Notes under the pieces: model-generated
What the model was told of the DNA's origin: nothing
Database searches by the model: none
The model's input: the letters and a program-made list of their open reading frames with translations, nothing else
Shown here: one piece after another, positions 1,768 through 36,430 of the stretch
Numbering within the stretch: the stretch's first letter is position 1
Layout of the letters: each line of letters starts with the position of its first letter
From: Aphelenchoides besseyi
Taxonomy: Eukaryota; Nematoda; Chromadorea; Rhabditida; Aphelenchoididae
Direction: 5' to 3'
NCBI GenBank assembly: GCA_024699855.1
Contig: JAMPIQ010000001.1
Span: 17,608,001 to 17,672,000 of the forward strand
DNA: 64,000 nucleotides
Program-made: the position numbers and the translations under genes

Positions 1768-3143
1768 CAAAAATGAACTTCGATTAACAGTTGAGACGAA
1801 ATCGTTTGATGGCGAGCAGTTGGCGTCACAGTTAAGTGAGTTATGACGTGACCTTTTCGAGCACATTGAAATGCCGTTAAACGGGGATTTGTTGAAAGAA
1901 AGAATTCAAAGTGTTCGCAATGAAACGAAAAACAAATGTAAATGCCAAAAGACGTCCAAATGCAAATTGCCGCGACTAATCCAACGGGCAATTTTAAGTC
2001 CCAACACATCCGAAAAGCTTTCGAAAGGAGAACGGTCGCTTGCCGGAACGACGGGAAGCGCAAAACGTTGTCGCATTGAACGTATCGTGTTCGAGGGCAC
2101 TTCGCAGTCTTTTAATCGCCGTCTCCGCTCCAACAAAATGCCACGAACTTACGTGTCTGCTCCGAATGGACACTTCGAATCCCATTCAACTCTCGTTGCT
2201 GTGCACTCGTTACACCGTTCAACATTCCGTGCAAACTGACTGTCGACGATCTGCTGTTCATGTAACGACCATTGGTCGTCTGCGGTGGTTGGGCGGAACT
2301 GAAATCGAGTTTCGTAAGCGTTTGATGAATTCACGATTTAACACATCGGGAAGAGACGTTCGAGTGGTGAATCAAAAACAACGAAAAGAAAATTTGCGTC
2401 TCCGTTCAAGGCTCTCCAACTCTGTCGCCTTCTGATGTCATTGGCCAGAAAAAACATTTCGCTGCGGTGGCGAACTGCAATGGCTGGGGACAAAATAGCA
2501 CGTTGTCAAAAAGCGAAAACGTCCGCTTTTTTAAACGAACATCCGCGAAGGCACACAACGAAAAATTTGCGGTCAGAGGCGAGAGCTATCAGCTTACGAG
2601 ATTTTGGTCTTCGAAATGAAAACACTTTTAAATGAAAGGTATTTTGCAGCCGTTGAGCTTCGGCTTCTAATCCACTTAATTTGAAGTTTTTGTTTGTTCA
2701 CAAAAACTCACGTTCCCAATTGCCCTTTGCTGTTACGATGCTTTCGAGAGCCGCTGGAGCGCATAGTCGAAATGGACCGGTAGCTGGCGAAGCGAACTGA
2801 ACTCATACACGACGATCAAAAGTCTTGGATGAAAGTTGAAAAGGCGGTCACGGTCGGAGGGTTTCGGGGCCGTCGGCTTCTCGGCTTTCCGCCCTTCGAT
2901 GTGTTCCGTTTTGATTACTCATTTTTTGGCCGCCTGTTCATGGAGCACGTGACATCTCACGAAGAAAGACGTCAAGATCTCGTTCAAATCGACTCTTCCT
3001 TGTTCTTTGGGCTTTGCATTTAGAATTGCTTGAGCATTTATTTAATTAGTTAAACTAACAATCGATAAATAATAACAAACAAAAACAAGGAAATTCAATT
3101 CTGAACAAAGACATGATCTTCGTGGATGAGCGTGTGCTGCTCC
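1768..3143. other. Interval upstream of glutaminase, no gene assigned
   Basis: It probably holds the 5' exons and promoter of the glutaminase gene and the 3' end of the IMPDH transcript. Minus-strand open frames at 2063-1994 and 2790-2700 have basic or protein-like composition and splice-like borders, but none matches a family I recognise and I could not chain them in frame. Confidence 0.4.
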
Positions 3144-5163
3144 TCACTTCTCGTACCTAAAAACTGACATTAAAAAGGAAATTGGAAACTGAAACTTGCG
3201 AGTGAAGTGAGTGAACTCCTCCTTCCAACTGGGCATTCTGAGAGCGCCGTTCGAATCGAATACGACCATCGTAAACACCATCTCTGAAAAAAGATCATTT
3301 TAATCGAAGATGTTTGAACTTACTGAAGATCTTGAATGCTCCGTACTCCAATGTCCTGGAATCCATGTTGAACGCCACGAACGATGTACGGCACGAACTT
3401 GTGAATACTTCCACGGTCTCGCATGGTCGCCGAGACTCCTTGAGCCACTTTGATTACATCCGATTCGCTGAAAACATAAGTTGAAATGATGAAAGGTCTC
3501 GTCACTTACTTTGTGAAATAGCGTTCTTGACTTGTCGCGTTCGCTTCCATTGCATCCAAGGACCCCATTCCTCGATACCTGAAAGTACAATAAATTATTT
3601 CGCATTAATGGGCAGTTACTTACTTTTTTAACCGAACGCCAGAAGGTCCCCAGAAGTATTCACCAGGTGCTTCATTCGTACCGGCCAACAAACCGCCCAT
3701 CATGACAGTCGAAGCGCCGAGAGACAACGCTTTCGTAATGTAACCGACGTCTCTGAAATTAAATGTTCAATGGAGAATCTGAAATATTGAAACAAACCGA
3801 ATTCCACCATCCGCAACGACTGGAATACCACGAGAATGAGCATATCGAGCGACTTGGTAAACTGCTGAGCCTTGAGCTCGACCCACAGCCATCACTAGAA
3901 TTTACGTTTAGCTTCATCGACTTCTATGTTCTTACCTTCCTGTGTGATGCAAATCGAGCCACTGCCCATTCCAACTCGAAGTGCATCAGCTCCGGCATCG
4001 ATTAGAACCTTTGCTTGCTGCATCGTGACCACATTGCCGGCAATCACTTGCGGACCATCGGGGTATGTTGCTTTGATCCATTTTAATAGCTGGACTTGGT
4101 ATTCGCTAGCGCCATTTGACGAGTCCTGAAAAAACAATAGACTATCAAGAATCTACAACTTACAATCACGAGCACGTCCACCTCCGCTTTCACAAGCTTC
4201 TCGACCGCTTCCTTTGCCGTTTCACGTGTGTTGACCGCTGCACCGACCATGAGTTGTCCCTTGGAATCGTAGCTCGAGAGTGGAAAGTCGCGAGCTTTCT
4301 TCAGATCCGTTCGTGCAATCAACGAAATCAGTTCGTCGCGTTCATTAACGATCGGTAATTTTCCTGTAAGACATGGAAATCAAATGAAATTGAAATCTGC
4401 TCACCTTTCTTTTCTTCCTCCAGAATCTCGTATGCTTTGTCAAGATTCATCGATTCGGTGCCGATGGTCAGTTTGTCGCGTGGAACCATGACATCTTCGA
4501 TTTTTGTGGAATCGTATCGTTCGACTTTAATGAAATCAATGTCTCGTGACGTTACCAGTCCTACAAACAAATAAGGTTCAAACAAACAATCGCAAAGACC
4601 CACCGAGCAATTTAGAGCCACAAGTTCCGTCTGAAGTCACTGGGGTTCCCGTGAATCCGTGTTTGTTTTTGATTTGAATGAGTGTGCGAACAGTGTCTTT
4701 GGGCCCAATGCATTGGGGATTTGTAATAAAACCCTGCTTGTACCGTTTCACCTTCAGCACTTCCTCCGACTGTTCGTCCAAAGTCGCGAAGTTGGCGTGA
4801 ATGATTCCGATTCCACCGTGCAACTGAAAACATCGCTTTTAAGACAAAAAACAAACTGAACTAACCGCCATGCCGATCGCCATTTCACTTTCGGTTACCG
4901 TGTCCATTGGCGATGAGATGAGCGGAACGTTGAGTTTGATCTTCCTCGTCAAATTGGTGCCGAGACTCACGGCCGTCACCGGGAAATCGATATAGCCGGG
5001 GAAGATATTGAAGTCACTGAAATTGCAGAACACAAAATGACAAATCCAACGATCGAACTTACTTGTACGTTGTACCAACTCCAGTCGAGAAGAGTTGCTC
5101 GATCGTTTCACCGTCTTGTTGGAATTCGCGCTCCCAGTTGACGGCCGATAATTTCGCTTGCAT
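3144..5163 (-). CDS. IMPDH: Inosine-5'-monophosphate dehydrogenase
   Basis: Oxidises IMP to XMP with NAD+, the committed step of guanine nucleotide synthesis, in the cytosol. Multi-exon gene of about 500 codons. The start at 5163 ([13 protein letters not shown]) is chosen because a 3' splice site (AATTTCAG) lies 14 bases upstream and the following GVGTTYK stretch aligns with the family N terminus. Seen in order: [19 protein letters not shown], the CBS-pair region ([46 protein letters not shown]), [46 protein letters not shown], then [12 protein letters not shown] containing the catalytic cysteine loop, and later IHKFVPYIV. The last intron appears to use a GC donor (GCAAGT after 3200); joining it gives HSLHSYEK then stop, matching the family C terminus but three residues shorter than human. 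Full length, all core motifs present. Confidence 0.97.
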
Positions 5164-29578: not shown

Positions 29579-31998
29579 CCATCGAGTGAGATCTTGTAGA
29601 ACAAGAACAGGTGCACACATCGACGTCATGTCGACTTTTGACGCGCACTAAGTTTTATAATAAAATATGTGCATATGAAAAGACTTAATGGTATGAAATT
29701 GGTACGAAATGCGTCTATCGAATCGACGAATGAAGAGTTCGAAGGATGCTACAGAAGGCGGATATTAGGAAGACTACGAGATTTGTAGGCTCCAACAGGT
29801 TTCAGGTTCGAGTTTTTAGAAAAAACACCGAACTACGGTAATCAGCGAAGAAGAAGAGGAAGAACAAGTCTGAAGGTTTATAAGCGTCTGTGAGGGCGAC
29901 GCTCTAAACCCGTTAAATAAAAAGCAAACGAACTCGAATTTCTCAGTTTTTAAATCCATAGATAGTAAATGGGCGTGCACATTTGCAAACAACCGTACGT
30001 TAATTATAACTGAAGAGTACAGTAAGTACGAAGATTAAACATTAATACTATTAAGTTTGTTTTTAGCTTGCATCCTAATTAGATCATAGTATGTTAGAAG
30101 AAACAACGAAAGTGCAATACTCGAACCACGAAACGGTAGTAAAATTGATCTTATTCTGGCAGGCTCTATACTAGCAAATCGAGTTAGCGAGCTTCGAGCG
30201 GTCAAATGACATAACCTCAACTTTTATGGATCACTCAATAAGATTACGTCTAGGTGCAGTGTGATGCACGTCATCGAAAGAAAATGAACTACGGTGAACG
30301 AATGGAAAGAACGTGTTTACGAACTATCCGAAAAAGTTAGGAACACCGGTGAAAAGACTAAAAGGACAATACGCAAAATCGTTAATTTCAGTCCGATGAA
30401 GTTTTGAAGGCTCTTGTGGGTTCTGCCCTAATGAGTGTAGGTGGTTAGCTGGGGTTGTGATTGAGTGGGTTGTTTGAAACATGGATTGTGCAAATACACG
30501 AAGATATCATAAGTCCAATGGAGAGAATTTCTTTACGCTTTGAAGTGTTTTTGTGCTTTTGCTCGACTGTTTTTATCGAGGAAATTCGTGCTAATGAGAT
30601 TTGGAGAGTTCGAACAAGATCCGCTTCATTGAACCGTTCACTCCTAAACTCGTTCGAAAACTTTATTTTTTGAAGAGCAGACGACAGCGGAAATGGTCGC
30701 AAAGGAAGTAAACAGGAACGTCGACGTCAAACAAATTTAAATGCCATATGCACTCTAGCAAGATGTTGGGAGGTCTCAGCATTTCAATCAAAGTATATGA
30801 GTCGACATTCGAGCACAATCTTTAGTCTTTTTAGTGTGAGAGTTCGCGGCGTGCCCTCGCATTGTCTGCAAAACAAACTCGAAATAATCGCAATTACCAC
30901 GTTCCCGGGCTATTTATAACCTACAGGTTAATTCGTTTGGGATGTGGGAAAAGTTTCGAGGGCTCGAGTTTGCTCATTTTTTACCGTAAAGTTAGCTCGA
31001 CTATAGTCCACGTGTTGTGACGATGGAATTTGTACGAGTGCAGCGAACGGTTTAATACGAGAAGCGGAAATCGATTTCCAAGAGAATTCTTCCAAACGGT
31101 AGTCTATGGTGGATTTGATGGAACCGAGGAAGAATAGACGTCGATTTTGAGTTTCGAGCGGTAAAGTAACGGGAAACTGTGGGTTGAATGTACGAAAGAG
31201 GAGGGGAAAAACAATACATCCGGTGCGACGGGCATATCCGGGTTTCTCATGATTCCGCGGGAGTTAAATCCCTGCCTAAACTACGCCGGAGATTGTTGGC
31301 GAGAATTGAGTTACGAACGGATGGAACATTGGTTGGATGGGTGTGATTTCAATTGTGACGAACATCGACAGACTCGAAACTGGAAATTCAGCAAATGCAA
31401 ACGCTTTGCAAGAGTATCGTCGAGACCGTCTTTTCGTATCACTTGACTATACGACCATCCATCCCGTTGTTTACTTACGCTTAAAATAGGAGGTCACGAT
31501 GACGGAAAGTCCGAAAAATAGTAACGATCTTTGCATTGTCTACGGGATTGAATATCTTTAAAGGTCAAATGGCCAGCCGGTTCCGTTTGAATTGCATAAA
31601 AAACGTGTTCTGTTCACGAAGGAGTTCAACAAAACGTTGATGGAACCTACGAAATTTCGTAAAGAAAGATCGAACCATTTTGTCAACACGAATTCAAATG
31701 CTTTGAATTCGGGTGGGTGGTTTGGCACAATAAACGACGTTTAAAACACTTGGCGTGGAGGTTCGAGTTACTTTCGGGTTGCTCTGAAGTTACAGTGATC
31801 GTAGAATTGACGTCTGTATTTCGTCATCACCGAGTGGTTAGTCAAACAAAGTCATAAGTTTTTGTATGGAAATGCGATCGAATTTCGAATTGACTTCGGA
31901 CACATAAAGCACGTTGTGTTTATTAAAATGTGACGATTTAGTCGATGGGAATCGATTTTACGTTTTGTTTGTTTGCATTCTGTGATGTTTCGAAAGCT
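29579..31998. other. Long intergenic stretch, no gene recognised
   Basis: About 2.4 kb between the RFamide gene promoter and the last serpin cassette. No open frame above 90 codons with motifs, no further reactive-loop exon and no tRNA signal found. An AATAAA signal for the distal serpin transcript lies near 31919 on the minus strand. Confidence 0.5.
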
Positions 31999-32163
31999 TC
32001 AGCCCATGAAGTTACCGAAGAAGAGCGGATGGTCGGCGTAGGAAATGACGTAGAAGAACGGATGGTCGGCTTTGAACACGGGAACGACTGGTGGCATCGA
32101 CGGTCGTCCACGATTCATCACAAGTGCTGTTGCAGCAGCGGCTTCCGAACCCTCTTCATTGAC
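31999..32163 (-). other. Serpin reactive-loop cassette C (distal)
   Basis: 165-base terminal exon after CTCATTTAG. Hinge [12 protein letters not shown], loop [15 protein letters not shown], then [20 protein letters not shown] and NFMG stop. By counting from the hinge, P1 falls at or next to the Arg-Gly of NRGR, suggesting a trypsin-like or subtilisin-like target. An AATAAA lies about 80 bases downstream. Confidence 0.9.
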
Positions 32164-34002
32164 CTAAATGAGGTCGAGATTATGAAGGGTTTTCTCAAAT
32201 TGCATTTATTTCGTTGGTCATTCAAGTGGACAGATATTTTGGCGAGCTTTTCAAAAAGACGATTCAATTCTAGCCGAAGTATTGACCCAAGAAAAGAGGT
32301 TGTCCATTGAAGTAGATTCCGTAGACGAACGGATGATCGGCCTTAAATCTTATGGGTTCGGGAGTTGGCTCGGGCATTGAAGCAAATGTCATGACGATAC
32401 CAGTCGCTGCCGCAGCTTCTGATCCCACCTCATTGACCTAAACGTATAAAAATTGGATGGAAATGACAAGCAAATCCCTCAGTTTTCTTTACTATGAAAC
32501 AACAAATGACAATCAGCAAAAAAAGCGACACTAAATACAAACAGTGAAATAAGTTAAAAAGAAACGAAAAAACTACGACGAGCCCTTGAAGGTGCCCAAA
32601 AATAGCCACTGGTCTTTGAAAAGTACACCGAAAAGGAAGGGATGATCAGCGACGAACTGCTCGATCGGATCGCCAATCATTCGACTCATGATAATCGCAG
32701 TGGAAGCAGCAGCCTCAGTACCAGATTCGTTCGACTGCAATGATCGGATGTTTATTCCAAACTCCTGCGAGTGCACACTAGAGAATTAGAATCGCACACA
32801 GGTTAGAGGAATGGCCGTGGAGTGAGTAGAGTTAGTGAGGATGAAGAATTCAAGCACCAGAGTTCAGTTCACACTTTCAACCCCCAAACTTTTTACAAAG
32901 TCACTTACCTCAATGAATGCCTTGTGAATGACTTGGGAGATGAACAAATCTCCATCGCTAGTGATTCCGCTGAAGTCCGCTTGTTTCGAAAAGCCTTCGG
33001 AGAAGCCGAGTTTGTCCAACACGTCATTTAATTCGATCTGAGAATTGATCTTGAAACGTGGCAGTTCAATCTGGAATTTTCGAATGCAAATTTCCGGTCG
33101 TTTAGTCGCGAACTCACGTTGACTTCACGGCGTTCGAATTGGGACTTCAATTTCAACAGTTCGGAGCCGTTGGTCTTCTTAACCCAATCGGCCAAACCGA
33201 ACTTTTCTTTGGGCAAAAACGCAACGAACGAAGCGTGCGAATCGGCGTACGGCAACTCCAGAACTTGAACGTCCGAGTTTTCAACGTAGTTGACTTTGGT
33301 TTTCATTTTCATCATTTTGACCTAAAGAGCAATTGAACATAAACAAGTTCAAAAGGAACACCCACTTGTTGGTCTTTGTTTTCGGCGACAAAGAACTTCT
33401 CATCGGTGGTACGCTTCTCATCAAATTGTTTGAACCAATTGCCCTTGAAGTAGACGGCGTTGATAAGGACGAGTTTGGTTTGAGCGCTGATGGCATCGTT
33501 GCTGAGAAGGTTTTGGATTTTGTCGTGGGTTGTCTTGGCCACAAAATCGTTGATCTCTTTGACCGTGGAGTCAGCTTGCGAAAAATCGACTTGTTTGAAA
33601 TCGCCGTTGAAATTCTTCGTGATCAGCTCTTTGTATTCAGGTTTGATGTTCAGTCTCTGGTCCGTGTAGGCGCGATTAGCAATTTCCAAAGTGATGTTTT
33701 TGTCCGGTGAAGTTAATTGCTGAAGAGTTTGATGGAAGAGAGAATTGAGAGCTTCGTTGTTGATTCCGCCTTGAAAAAGTGTGTTTGCGGTAAGACGAAG
33801 ACATAAGTGGGAACAAACCTTTGGCAAAAACCGAATCGAACTCTTTACGTGTATCACCCGAAGAGCCGGAATACGCCAACGACAGAGCCAATGCGATGGA
33901 GATAGGTGACAAGATGCACGATGCGGTGGAGTTGATGGCGGTTTCGCGGAGTAGACCAACGGCAAATTCAGTGGTGGCTTCAATGAAAGCAAGATCGGCC
34001 AT
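31999..34002 (-). CDS. Intracellular (clade B-like) serpin with three alternative reactive-loop exons
   Basis: Serine or cysteine protease inhibitor. The start [20 protein letters not shown] at 34002 lies 3 bases after a splice site (CGATTTCAG). There is no signal peptide, so the product is probably cytosolic. Common exons run from 34002 to 32909: [83 protein letters not shown], and [11 protein letters not shown], ending in phase 0 at a GTAAGT donor. Downstream lie three separate exons, each starting in phase 0 with the serpin hinge ([36 protein letters not shown]), each encoding a complete reactive loop, the ADHPF motif and its own stop. All hinges look inhibitory (small residues at P12-P9). 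The whole is a standard serpin of about 370-380 residues with a replaceable inhibitory end. Confidence 0.93.
32270..32437 (-). other. Serpin reactive-loop cassette B (middle)
   Basis: 168-base terminal exon after ACGTTTAG. Hinge [12 protein letters not shown], loop [17 protein letters not shown], then [20 protein letters not shown] and QYFG stop. The P1 region is Phe-Ala-Ser, suggesting a chymotrypsin- or elastase-like target. An AATAAA lies downstream near 32208. Confidence 0.9.
32573..32734 (-). other. Serpin reactive-loop cassette A (proximal)
   Basis: 162-base terminal exon after CATTGCAG. Hinge [12 protein letters not shown], loop [15 protein letters not shown], then [20 protein letters not shown] and TFKGSS stop. 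The P1 region is Arg-Met-Ile. No clear AATAAA was seen before the next cassette. Confidence 0.9.
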
Positions 34003-34090
34003 TTCCTGAAATCGAATTATTGAGAAAGCGATTCGTGGAGCCGAAAAGTGAATTGATGGCGTGCAGACGGCGCGTCATATCTTTCGCTCA

Positions 34091-34310
34091 CAAGGAAAGG
34101 TTGCGACTTGTCCGAGCCCGATTCAAGTGAATTTGGTATCAATCGATGCATCTGAGTGTGCTGATCACTAAATGGTAGGCCATTTTCCCCCGGATTCAGA
34201 ATCCGAAAAGTTATAGGCAAAAAACAAAATCCAAAACAGTCACCGCAGGCGGAGTCGAACCATCGCCCGCTGACGGCCGCCCGCTCCACTAACCACTCGG
34301 CCACCGCTGC
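34091..34310 (-). repeat. SINE-like element with a tRNA-derived head
   Basis: Minus strand 34310-34241 has RNA polymerase III boxes in tRNA spacing: box A TGGCCGAGTGG and box B GGTTCGACTCC. The acceptor stems do not pair properly and no good anticodon arm forms, so it is not a working tRNA. The body continues to 34091. A near-identical 145-base body copy lies inverted at 34459-34603. tRNA-derived head plus repeated body is the usual SINE layout. Confidence 0.7.
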
Positions 34311-34458
34311 TCACGCTCTCGAATACGAAACGCGCGCTTATATCGCCAAGAAAACAATGATGCTCCATATCTCGCTTCTGAAGCATGATAACAAAAAACG
34401 GAGTTCAGATTCGGATTCCCCATAGTTGAGAACCTCTAAAACCATAAAAACGCAAAAA

Positions 34459-34603
34459 TTTTGGATTTTGTTTTTGCCTATAACTTTTCGGATTCTGAAT
34501 CCGGGGAAAAATGGCCTACCATTTAGTGATCAGCACACTCAGACGCATCGATTGATACCAAATTCACTCGAATCGGGCTCGGACAAGTCGCAACCTTTCC
34601 TTG
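34459..34603 (+). repeat. Inverted body copy of the SINE-like element
   Basis: About 145 bases beginning TTTTGGATTTTGTTTTTGCC match the reverse complement of 34236-34091 with only a few mismatches. It lacks the tRNA-like head. The two arms, about 220 bases apart, could form a long hairpin in RNA crossing both. Confidence 0.9.
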
Positions 34604-36193
34604 TCAGCTTTCCGACGACTGTTGATTGCAAAACAGCCCGCCGATGTTTTTTGTTATGAGAATCGAAGAAAAAACAATAATCCCGTCTACTGCCCTACCG
34701 CTGTGTTGTTGTTTCCCCCTTCAACCCGTCGACGTCTTATCCCTTCCGATCTTCGACTTAACACTCGCGAAAGATTCGGCTCTAAAATAACCGAACTGCT
34801 TCGACCACATCAATGGTTTTTGGTCTTCGTGAAGCCAATTAAACAAAACGAAATAAACAATCCGAAGAGATGTGGCCTTTGAGCAAACCTTTTTGTTTGT
34901 TTCCGACATTCCCAACGTTCCGGAACGATGAGTTACGATCGCTGATGAATTGGCAGCTAAAATCGAGAAAACTTGAAATTTTAATGGCGAACGTTTCGAA
35001 GCTCCAACGAGCAGGTCGTTTGCTTTCGCAAACGCAGTGGAATGGAGGGTTCTTTCGGGAACAAAAAACAACGAGACCGATTGATTCACGGACAAAAACA
35101 AGTCGAATGGGTTTTGAAAGAAAAACAGAAAGGTTAAGGTGATTTATTGTGTGGTGGAATCGGTATGACTGACCGGTTTCTTTTGAATTCACAAAGTGAC
35201 ATTCGAAGTGAAATTGAGAGATTGCCCCCCAAACAAGTCAAGAGTCAACAGGAAGCTTTTACTTGGACTGCTGGTTGTTGACATGCAAATCGAATTCTAT
35301 TTGCTGTAGGTGTCCGAAACAATCTGATAGGTCAAGGATCTCCGACTGACGTCTAACTTGCAGTCGAACCGATTAAATGACACATCTCCAAGAAACTGAT
35401 GTTGAATAGAAATTTTTTGTGGTTTTGAAATTTCCATGACGACAAAAACGTTTGTCGCCGTTGAGTCAGTTTCTGTGGACGAGTGTTGAGTAATGATTGT
35501 TTGACTAACGTTTGGAAGTCGTCATTGTTTGAGGGGCCAAAACGGCCGTTCAGTGATCTTCGATTCGAATTTTGTGTTTGTCAACGATTTTGAAGAACTT
35601 AAGAGACGTAAACTTCTTAACGCTACGAATGGATTCAATTGAGAAGGTCTTCGATGGTTGTTGTGCAAATAGGAAATGTCGTAGCGGAGGAGTTCAATGC
35701 GTGGGCCACGTCATTGAACGGCAATCAACGAGTTTTTGGAAACATGTGATTGATGCAAAAGGAAAGACCGTTGATAAGCAAGTTGTTTACGTCAAGAGAA
35801 GAATCTTAAGAGCTGAGAACGGGATCCACGGTCACATGATTCGATTTTAATGGCCGTCGTAAACCATGAAAACAATGAAGCAACTTTCGAACATTCTAAT
35901 GGCATTTCTAATTAAGACGCATTGATTTTGTGAACGCGATTTTTATAAGAAGGTGATAAAATTCGACTTTAGGTGCTGCACCTTTGGAAGGTACGATTCC
36001 GACTATCTCTCCGCCCATCTGAAGCACAAACAAAGCTGCCAAAAGTTGAATATAAGCACGGCTCAGACTGACTCTAACATCAAGCACTTCGAATCCTTTG
36101 CTTTCCATCTTCTCATCAAACACTCACAAGTAAGTTCGAGAGCTTACAGTCAAATGGCTGTCATTGGAATTAACTGGTAATCGCTCGATTTTC
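34604..36193. other. Intergenic, no gene recognised
   Basis: Overlapping open frames on both strands at 34721-35192 and one at 35572-35850 (plus) have no family motif. A minus-strand frame at 36123-35908 (MESKGFEVLDVRVSLSRAYI) has some protein-like character but no splice support. Confidence 0.45.
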
Positions 36194-36202
36194 AGACCAA
36201 CA

Positions 36203-36430
36203 ATGTCGGGACATCACGAAGTTTGTTTGAAAGCTCATAACCTTTTTACATTGTTCTTTTCTTTATAGCACGGTCATGAACACGGACACCACGATTCGCA
36301 TGGCCATGAACACGGACACTCGGCTCACGTTGTAGCACCACATCACGATGCGCACCATGACTCGCATCACGATGCACATCACGATTCGCACCACGACTCC
36401 CATGGACATCATGATTCCCATCATCATTGA
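36203..36430 (+). CDS. Histidine-rich mini-protein, likely metal-binding
   Basis: 59 residues in two exons: MSGHHE, an intron (GTTTGTTTG to CTTTATAG), then HGHEHGHHDSHGHEHGHSAH and repeated HHDS/HHDA units, ending HHH stop. About 28 of 59 residues are histidine, the rest mainly Gly, Asp, Ser, Glu and Ala. A TTTTCAG splice site ends 7 bases before the ATG (36195), suggesting trans-splicing. Such sequences chelate Zn, Cu, Ni or Cd; this is inferred from composition. There is no signal peptide, so it is probably cytosolic. Confidence 0.75.

What the first reader, a model, noticed from the sequence alone, without database searches (positions are those of the whole stretch)
31999..32909. Serpin with three alternative terminal exons, each a complete reactive centre loop
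The common serpin exons end in phase 0 at 32909. Downstream, three separate exons (32734-32573, 32437-32270, 32163-31999) each start in phase 0 at the same structural point with the inhibitory hinge, carry different P1 regions (Arg-Met-Ile, Phe-Ala-Ser, Arg-Gly-Arg), repeat the ADHPF motif and end with their own stop. One gene could thus make three inhibitors with different protease targets. Reactive-loop exon swapping is established for insect serpins (for example Manduca serpin-1); this nematode array looks like an independent, compact case.
Basis: partly seen in the sequence, partly recalled or inferred. Interest (0 to 1): 0.82.

Follow-up and report, generated by a model that had tools for sequence, protein, structure and literature searches.

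The report
Three-loop serpin gene in Aphelenchoides nematode
A plant-feeding nematode gene for a protease inhibitor carries three interchangeable last exons, each encoding a different protease-binding loop, so one gene can probably make three inhibitors; the arrangement is already known from insects and nematodes, but a public protein model of this gene seems to fuse the three ends into one protein.

Summary
On the minus strand an intact serpin body (ending in phase 0 at 32909) is followed by three in-phase exons (32734-32573, 32437-32270, 32163-31999), each with hinge, loop, ADHPF and stop. Each joined isoform is a full Pfam serpin, 346-357 bits. The body is identical to Aphelenchoides besseyi P0001, whose public model fuses all three loops through splice sites inside the exons. 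An A. fujianensis model has three loops too; its first and third are mutual best matches of A and C. Best explanation: alternative terminal exons, each with a polyA-like signal, give three inhibitors. No RNA evidence was available. It is not a new kind: a 2002 Gene paper is titled on such cassettes 'in insects and nematodes' (title seen). Possibly notable: a genome search found only these three loop exons and one of a broken paralogue, and they begin before the hinge, apparently unlike Drosophila Spn42Da. Verdict: new member of a known kind.

The parts
34889..34909 (-).
   Evidence: N-terminus of P0001; found in the window followed by GT, acceptor before 34005; similar MSEPNKQE start in A. fujianensis P0002
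33819..34005 (-). body exon (Met of the shorter model at 34002)
33366..33769 (-). body exon
   Evidence: Pfam serpin hit 1.1e-35
33118..33321 (-). body exon
32909..33070 (-). last common exon, ends ...HKAFIE in phase 0, donor GAG|GTAAGTGA
32573..32734 (-). alternative terminal exon A, 53 aa, loop ...[16 protein letters not shown]
   Evidence: first loop of A. fujianensis P0004, 30 of 46 identical, tree fork 98/98
32488..32493 (-). AGTAAA polyA-like signal, about 80 nt after the stop of exon A
   Evidence: A[AGT]TAAA occurs in 11.5% of sampled 80-nt stretches of the window
32270..32437 (-). alternative terminal exon B, 55 aa, loop ...[20 protein letters not shown]
32205..32210 (-). AATAAA polyA-like signal, about 60 nt after the stop of exon B
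   Evidence: AATAAA occurs in 4.5% of sampled 80-nt stretches of the window
31999..32163 (-). alternative terminal exon C, 54 aa, loop ...[19 protein letters not shown]
   Evidence: third loop of A. fujianensis P0004, 34 of 54 identical
31919..31924 (-). AATAAA polyA-like signal, about 75 nt after the stop of exon C

Best explanation
It is one serpin gene of Aphelenchoides besseyi (or a very close lineage) with three alternative terminal exons. The common donor at 32909 is spliced to A, B or C, and the transcript ends at the polyA signal behind the exon chosen. Each choice completes the same serpin body with a different reactive loop, so one gene probably supplies three suicide protease inhibitors, with Arg-Met (A), Phe-Ala (B) and Arg-Gly-Arg (C) at the bait position. 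By eye the N-terminus has no signal peptide, so they would act inside cells. Shown: anatomy, open frames, complete serpin profile, conservation of loops A and C in a sister species. Inferred: that all three are spliced, how the choice is made, the location and the protease targets.
For: All three exons are in phase with one donor and have their own stop. Each isoform scores 345.9-357.0 bits over profile positions 2 to 366-368 of 370. Third-position excess shows that the three evolve as coding exons. A. fujianensis P0004 holds three loops in a row; its first and exon A are mutual best matches (TRMI/SRMI, NQWLFLG/DQWLFLG; 30 of 46), as are its third and C (MNRSRP/MNRGRP; 34 of 54); A pairs with the first loop at 98/98 on the tree. 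The clusters HPF and F-x-G, which PMC4006314 calls crucial in the swapped Drosophila loops, are present in A, B and C. The end of exon A (QWLFLG) that P0001 leaves out is kept in P0004. Each exon has a polyA-like hexamer 60-80 nt behind its stop.
Against: No RNA evidence. Splice-site scoring was uninformative at best: the B and C acceptors scored at the 14th and 16th percentile of a noisy self-made set, A at the 66th, and B and C were not among the best 12 of 36 AGs in the region. An AATAAA at 32756 lies just before exon A. The public model P0001 uses one fused transcript instead. C and P0004's third loop are unresolved on the tree, and B's best match in P0004 is the third loop, not the second.
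Confidence: 0.87

Rival explanations
1. The public gene model is right: one 463-aa serpin carries the three loops in series, through splice sites inside the exons.
For: P0001 is exactly this protein, and multi-loop models exist in A. fujianensis, Acrobeloides, Toxocara and Heterodera trifolii.
Against: It needs donors inside A (GGT|GTACTT) and B (TTGG|GTCAAT) and an acceptor inside the start of C, and it discards [21 protein letters not shown] and VNE. It loses the F-x-G cluster of the first two loops although three complete, in-phase exons with stops are there. The discarded end of A is conserved in P0004.
Confidence: 0.05
2. Only one exon (for example C) is used; the other two are unused duplicates on the way to decay.
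For: The paralogue at G000:C1:17249097-17250348 has one loop exon of the same type.
Against: All three frames are intact and differ mainly at third positions; A and C keep their bait residues in A. fujianensis.
Confidence: 0.07
3. Exons B and C are remnants of neighbouring serpin genes that lost their bodies, not parts of this gene.
For: Gene duplication happens in the genus: 19 of the 120 listed matches are A. fujianensis models.
Against: The exons start only 297 and 274 nt apart, on one strand and in one phase, and no serpin-body hit lies between them in the Pfam search of the genome.
Confidence: 0.01

Closest known systems
[quoted passage not shown] 2002, Gene 293:97-105; title seen only)
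   Same: Nematode, several loop exons behind one body; PMC2770083 says cassettes are described in Caenorhabditis.
   Different: The paper is not held, so exon position and 3' ends of the C. elegans genes could not be compared.
Drosophila Spn42Da (Spn4)
   Same: Constant body, four alternative 3' loop exons, different protease targets (PMC4006314); solved chain 4p0f matches isoform C at 6.5e-62.
   Different: There the hinge appears to lie outside the variably spliced region; here it is inside each alternative exon. Alternative signal-peptide exons exist there; none was looked for here beyond the one 5' exon.
Manduca sexta serpin-1
   [quoted passage not shown] PMC5691223; passages).
   Different: 12 variants or 14 exon copies; first 336 residues constant (PMC2689274 passage). 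A secreted protein with a variable tail of 39-46 residues (both recalled), against 53-55 here.
A. fujianensis serpin model P0004
   Same: Three loops; first and third match A and C.
   Different: Seen as a protein model only, with body and loop ends clipped; middle loop differs from B; the species has many more serpin models.

Membership tests
Inhibitory serpin (Pfam PF00079) | Full-length serpin domain | tested here: met
   Isoforms A, B, C: 345.9, 357.0, 356.2 bits against a cut-off of 27, profile 2 to 366-368 of 370
Inhibitory serpin (Pfam PF00079) | Small-residue hinge (P15 Gly, P14 Thr/Ser, P12-P9 Ala/Ser; numbering recalled) | tested here: met
   [24 protein letters not shown]
Inhibitory serpin (Pfam PF00079) | Forms a covalent complex with a protease | not testable with these tools
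   Needs recombinant protein
Serpin gene with alternative reactive-loop exons | One body followed by two or more loop exons in the same phase at the same structural point | tested here: met
   Three exons, phase 0 after 32909
Serpin gene with alternative reactive-loop exons | Each exon completes the fold (HPF and F-x-G clusters, stop) | tested here: met
   DHPF and LFLG/LFLG/LFFG in A/B/C, each with a stop; clusters named in PMC4006314
Serpin gene with alternative reactive-loop exons | Alternative transcripts observed | not testable with these tools
Serpin gene with alternative reactive-loop exons | Isoforms differ in protease target | not testable with these tools
   Loops differ; no assay
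Insect-type (Spn42Da) cassette by common descent | Same junction position relative to the hinge | tested here: inconclusive
   Here the exon starts before the hinge, four residues ahead of its Gly; PMC4006314 names G335-V338, after the hinge, as variably spliced but gives no exact boundary in the section read

The most novel reading that the evidence does not exclude
In this nematode a single three-loop gene supplies the whole intact inhibitory serpin repertoire, its loop array predates the A. besseyi/A. fujianensis split, it arose independently of the insect cassettes (junction before rather than after the hinge), and the choice is made by competition between self-contained terminal exons with their own polyA sites.
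Probability: 0.3. Interest if true: 0.5.

Novelty: new member of a known kind. Interest (0 to 1): 0.3.

Why it matters
It adds a clear, compact example in the Tylenchina, and it points to a recurring annotation error: gene predictors seem to fuse alternative loop exons into multi-loop serpins in several nematodes, so loop repertoires would be misread in public databases. If the one-gene repertoire is real, it is a small, testable system for how loop choice is regulated.

Tried and rejected
Fourth loop exon in the window, both strands: none matched the hinge pattern. An upstream in-frame acceptor for exon A (exon start 32764) would add 10 residues before the hinge; it is not used in P0001 or P0004, scored at the 11th percentile, and was rejected. 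Home-made splice-site matrices: the training set of 83 putative introns was noisy and limited to GTA/GTG donors, so the two GTT donors of this gene scored at the bottom; discarded as a test, its results against the model told above. Shared ancestry of the stretches behind the exons: A-C scored 21.0 with 4 of 200 shuffles as high, A-B 14.0 with 167 and B-C 15.0 with 147 of 200; not used. Loop-exon tree of 33 chosen rows and 57 columns: 5 of 30 inner branches well supported, 17 open; the second Toxocara loop and the loops of P0017, P0021 and P0121 were not put in; only the fork of A with P0004's first loop was used. The protein searches scored a capped candidate list and showed 120 matches; the third showed all 7. 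ARAGORN found no tRNA in the window. Paper searches: loop + splicing + nematode terms gave 3 papers and 19; a looser C. elegans query gave 108, of which 20 were listed; 'srp-7' with serpin terms gave 0; serpin + Aphelenchoides gave 3, none on these genes by title or start of abstract; serpin + SRP-2 + SRP-6 gave 1, whose text does not use 'splic' or 'exon'. Structure prediction was not run: profile and solved-structure matches already give the fold.

Full report
What is there. On the minus strand an intact serpin gene runs from 34909 to 31999. Four body exons (34005-33819, 33769-33366, 33321-33118, 33070-32909) have GT-AG introns and join in one frame of 318 residues from MADLAF to HKAFIE. The public A. 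besseyi model adds a 7-codon 5' exon, which is in the window at 34909-34889, followed by a GT and an acceptor before 34005. Behind the common donor GAG|GTAAGTGA at 32909 lie three exons, A, B and C, each in phase 0 after an AG, each with hinge, loop, ADHPF, an F-x-G end and a stop. The joined isoforms are 371, 373 and 372 residues from MADLAF; compared without gaps, A-B and A-C agree at 330 positions and B-C at 336. All three cover the Pfam serpin profile. The closest solved chains by sequence are serpins, best 9j91 at 1e-68 for isoform C.

Whose gene. The window lies in a 47.4 Mb, 31-contig genome. P0001, 'putative serpin-like protein [Aphelenchoides besseyi]', contains the window's 318-residue body letter for letter and long identical pieces of all three loops.

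The public model is probably wrong. P0001 (463 aa) holds all three loops in series. It leaves out [16 protein letters not shown] of A, GQYFG of B and VNE of C, by splice sites inside the exons. The same sign, two or more hinge motifs in one model, was found in 17 of the 239 proteins held, which are the listed matches of three searches and not a random sample; 10 of the 17 carry nematode names: P0001; P0004, P0005, P0021 (A. fujianensis); P0016 (Acrobeloides nanus); P0029 (Toxocara canis); P0030, P0032, P0121 (Heterodera trifolii); P0017 (Globodera pallida). P0017 also repeats part of the body and may be two genes run together. The other seven were not studied.

Conservation. P0004 of A. fujianensis holds three loops, the first two clipped at their ends by the model. 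In the three-by-three comparison exon A and the first loop are mutual best matches (30 of 46 identical), and so are C and the third (34 of 54). On the tree A pairs with the first loop at 98/98 support, while C and the third are unresolved. The second loop's best match is B (23 of 49), but B's best match is the third loop. So the outer two loops, with SRMI/TRMI and NRGRP/NRSRP, are probably ancestral to both species; the middle one is uncertain. A search with the last 67 residues of isoform A gave 7 proteins at E <= 0.001 among 22 candidates, the two best being P0001 and P0004.

Repertoire. A whole-genome search with exon C at E <= 10 found four loop exons: A, B, C and the one of a paralogue about 390 kb away on the same contig. 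By eye that paralogue has the same intron positions and one loop exon, but its body has an in-frame stop and a shifted frame; a related intact protein, P0006, is listed for an A. besseyi record on another contig. The Pfam serpin search gave 16 matches: besides these two genes, one divergent serpin-like locus (L010) whose last part shows no inhibitory hinge and whose intactness I did not settle, and four weak hits that are copies of one dispersed repeat. The tool warns that only the best candidates are scored, so 'one intact inhibitory serpin gene' is likely but not proved.

Mechanism. Each exon is followed within 60-80 nt by a polyA-like hexamer (AGTAAA 32493, AATAAA 32210, AATAAA 31924), while AATAAA occurs in 4.5% and A[AGT]TAAA in 11.5% of sampled 80-nt stretches of the window. 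I therefore prefer alternative terminal exons with their own ends over swapping of an internal exon. How the choice is regulated is unknown; splice-site scoring gave nothing reliable, and what it gave did not favour B and C. Bait residues: plasminogen activator inhibitor-2 aligns to exon A without a gap through the loop. With its P1 Arg as I recall it, the P1 residues here would be Met, Ala and Gly; one residue earlier gives Arg, Phe and Arg. From memory, SERPINB1 uses both of these positions and alpha-2-antiplasmin the earlier one; neither was tested here.

What is known. Reactive-loop exon cassettes are established: Manduca serpin-1 (PMC1761132 and PMC5691223, passages), Drosophila Spn42Da (PMC4006314, passages and section 8), Anopheles (PMC2770083; PMC4015677; passages) and Caenorhabditis (PMC2770083). 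[quoted passage not shown] Krueger et al. 2002 is known to me here by title only. One difference bears on origin: in Spn42Da the hinge N324-T334 is discussed and coloured apart from the variably spliced region, which includes G335-V338, whereas here the exons begin before the hinge. That favours a separate origin from insects, but the C. elegans junction could not be compared.

Verdict. A real, well-built member of a known kind; modest interest, mainly for the likely annotation error and the possible one-gene repertoire.

Noticed in passing
window 34086-34608 (intron 1 of the serpin gene): Inverted-repeat element: 150-nt arms, 94% complementary, 223 nt between. Five full-length copies including this one at 90% identity or more (on C1 and C2), and partial ones on C1, C2 and C3. 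The middle looks tRNA-like to the eye, but ARAGORN calls nothing.
   Followed up: partly
L011-L014 (G000:C1:3913700-3915900, C3:8926600-8928800, C1:8179100-8181300, C2:17306300-17308500): A dispersed repeat, 95-99.5% identical over about 2.1 kb in four copies, carries a serpin-like fragment with a shared in-frame stop; the fragment resembles the divergent serpin-like locus L010, perhaps a serpin piece copied by a mobile element.
   Followed up: partly
L009 about 2070-3356 (G000:C1:17249097-17250348): Serpin paralogue with one loop exon whose hinge departs from the usual pattern (VNEQGTVAAAYS) and a broken body frame; a related intact protein, P0006, is listed for A. besseyi.
   Followed up: partly
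P0030 and P0032 (Heterodera trifolii): Four and three loops per model; all but the last share nearly identical ends (PPPPQFVADRPFVAFLVN) but have different tips, as if the loop exons were homogenised outside the bait region.
   Followed up: no
window 36269-36430: His-rich repetitive open frame (HGHEHGHHDSHGHEHG...) on the plus strand.
   Followed up: no
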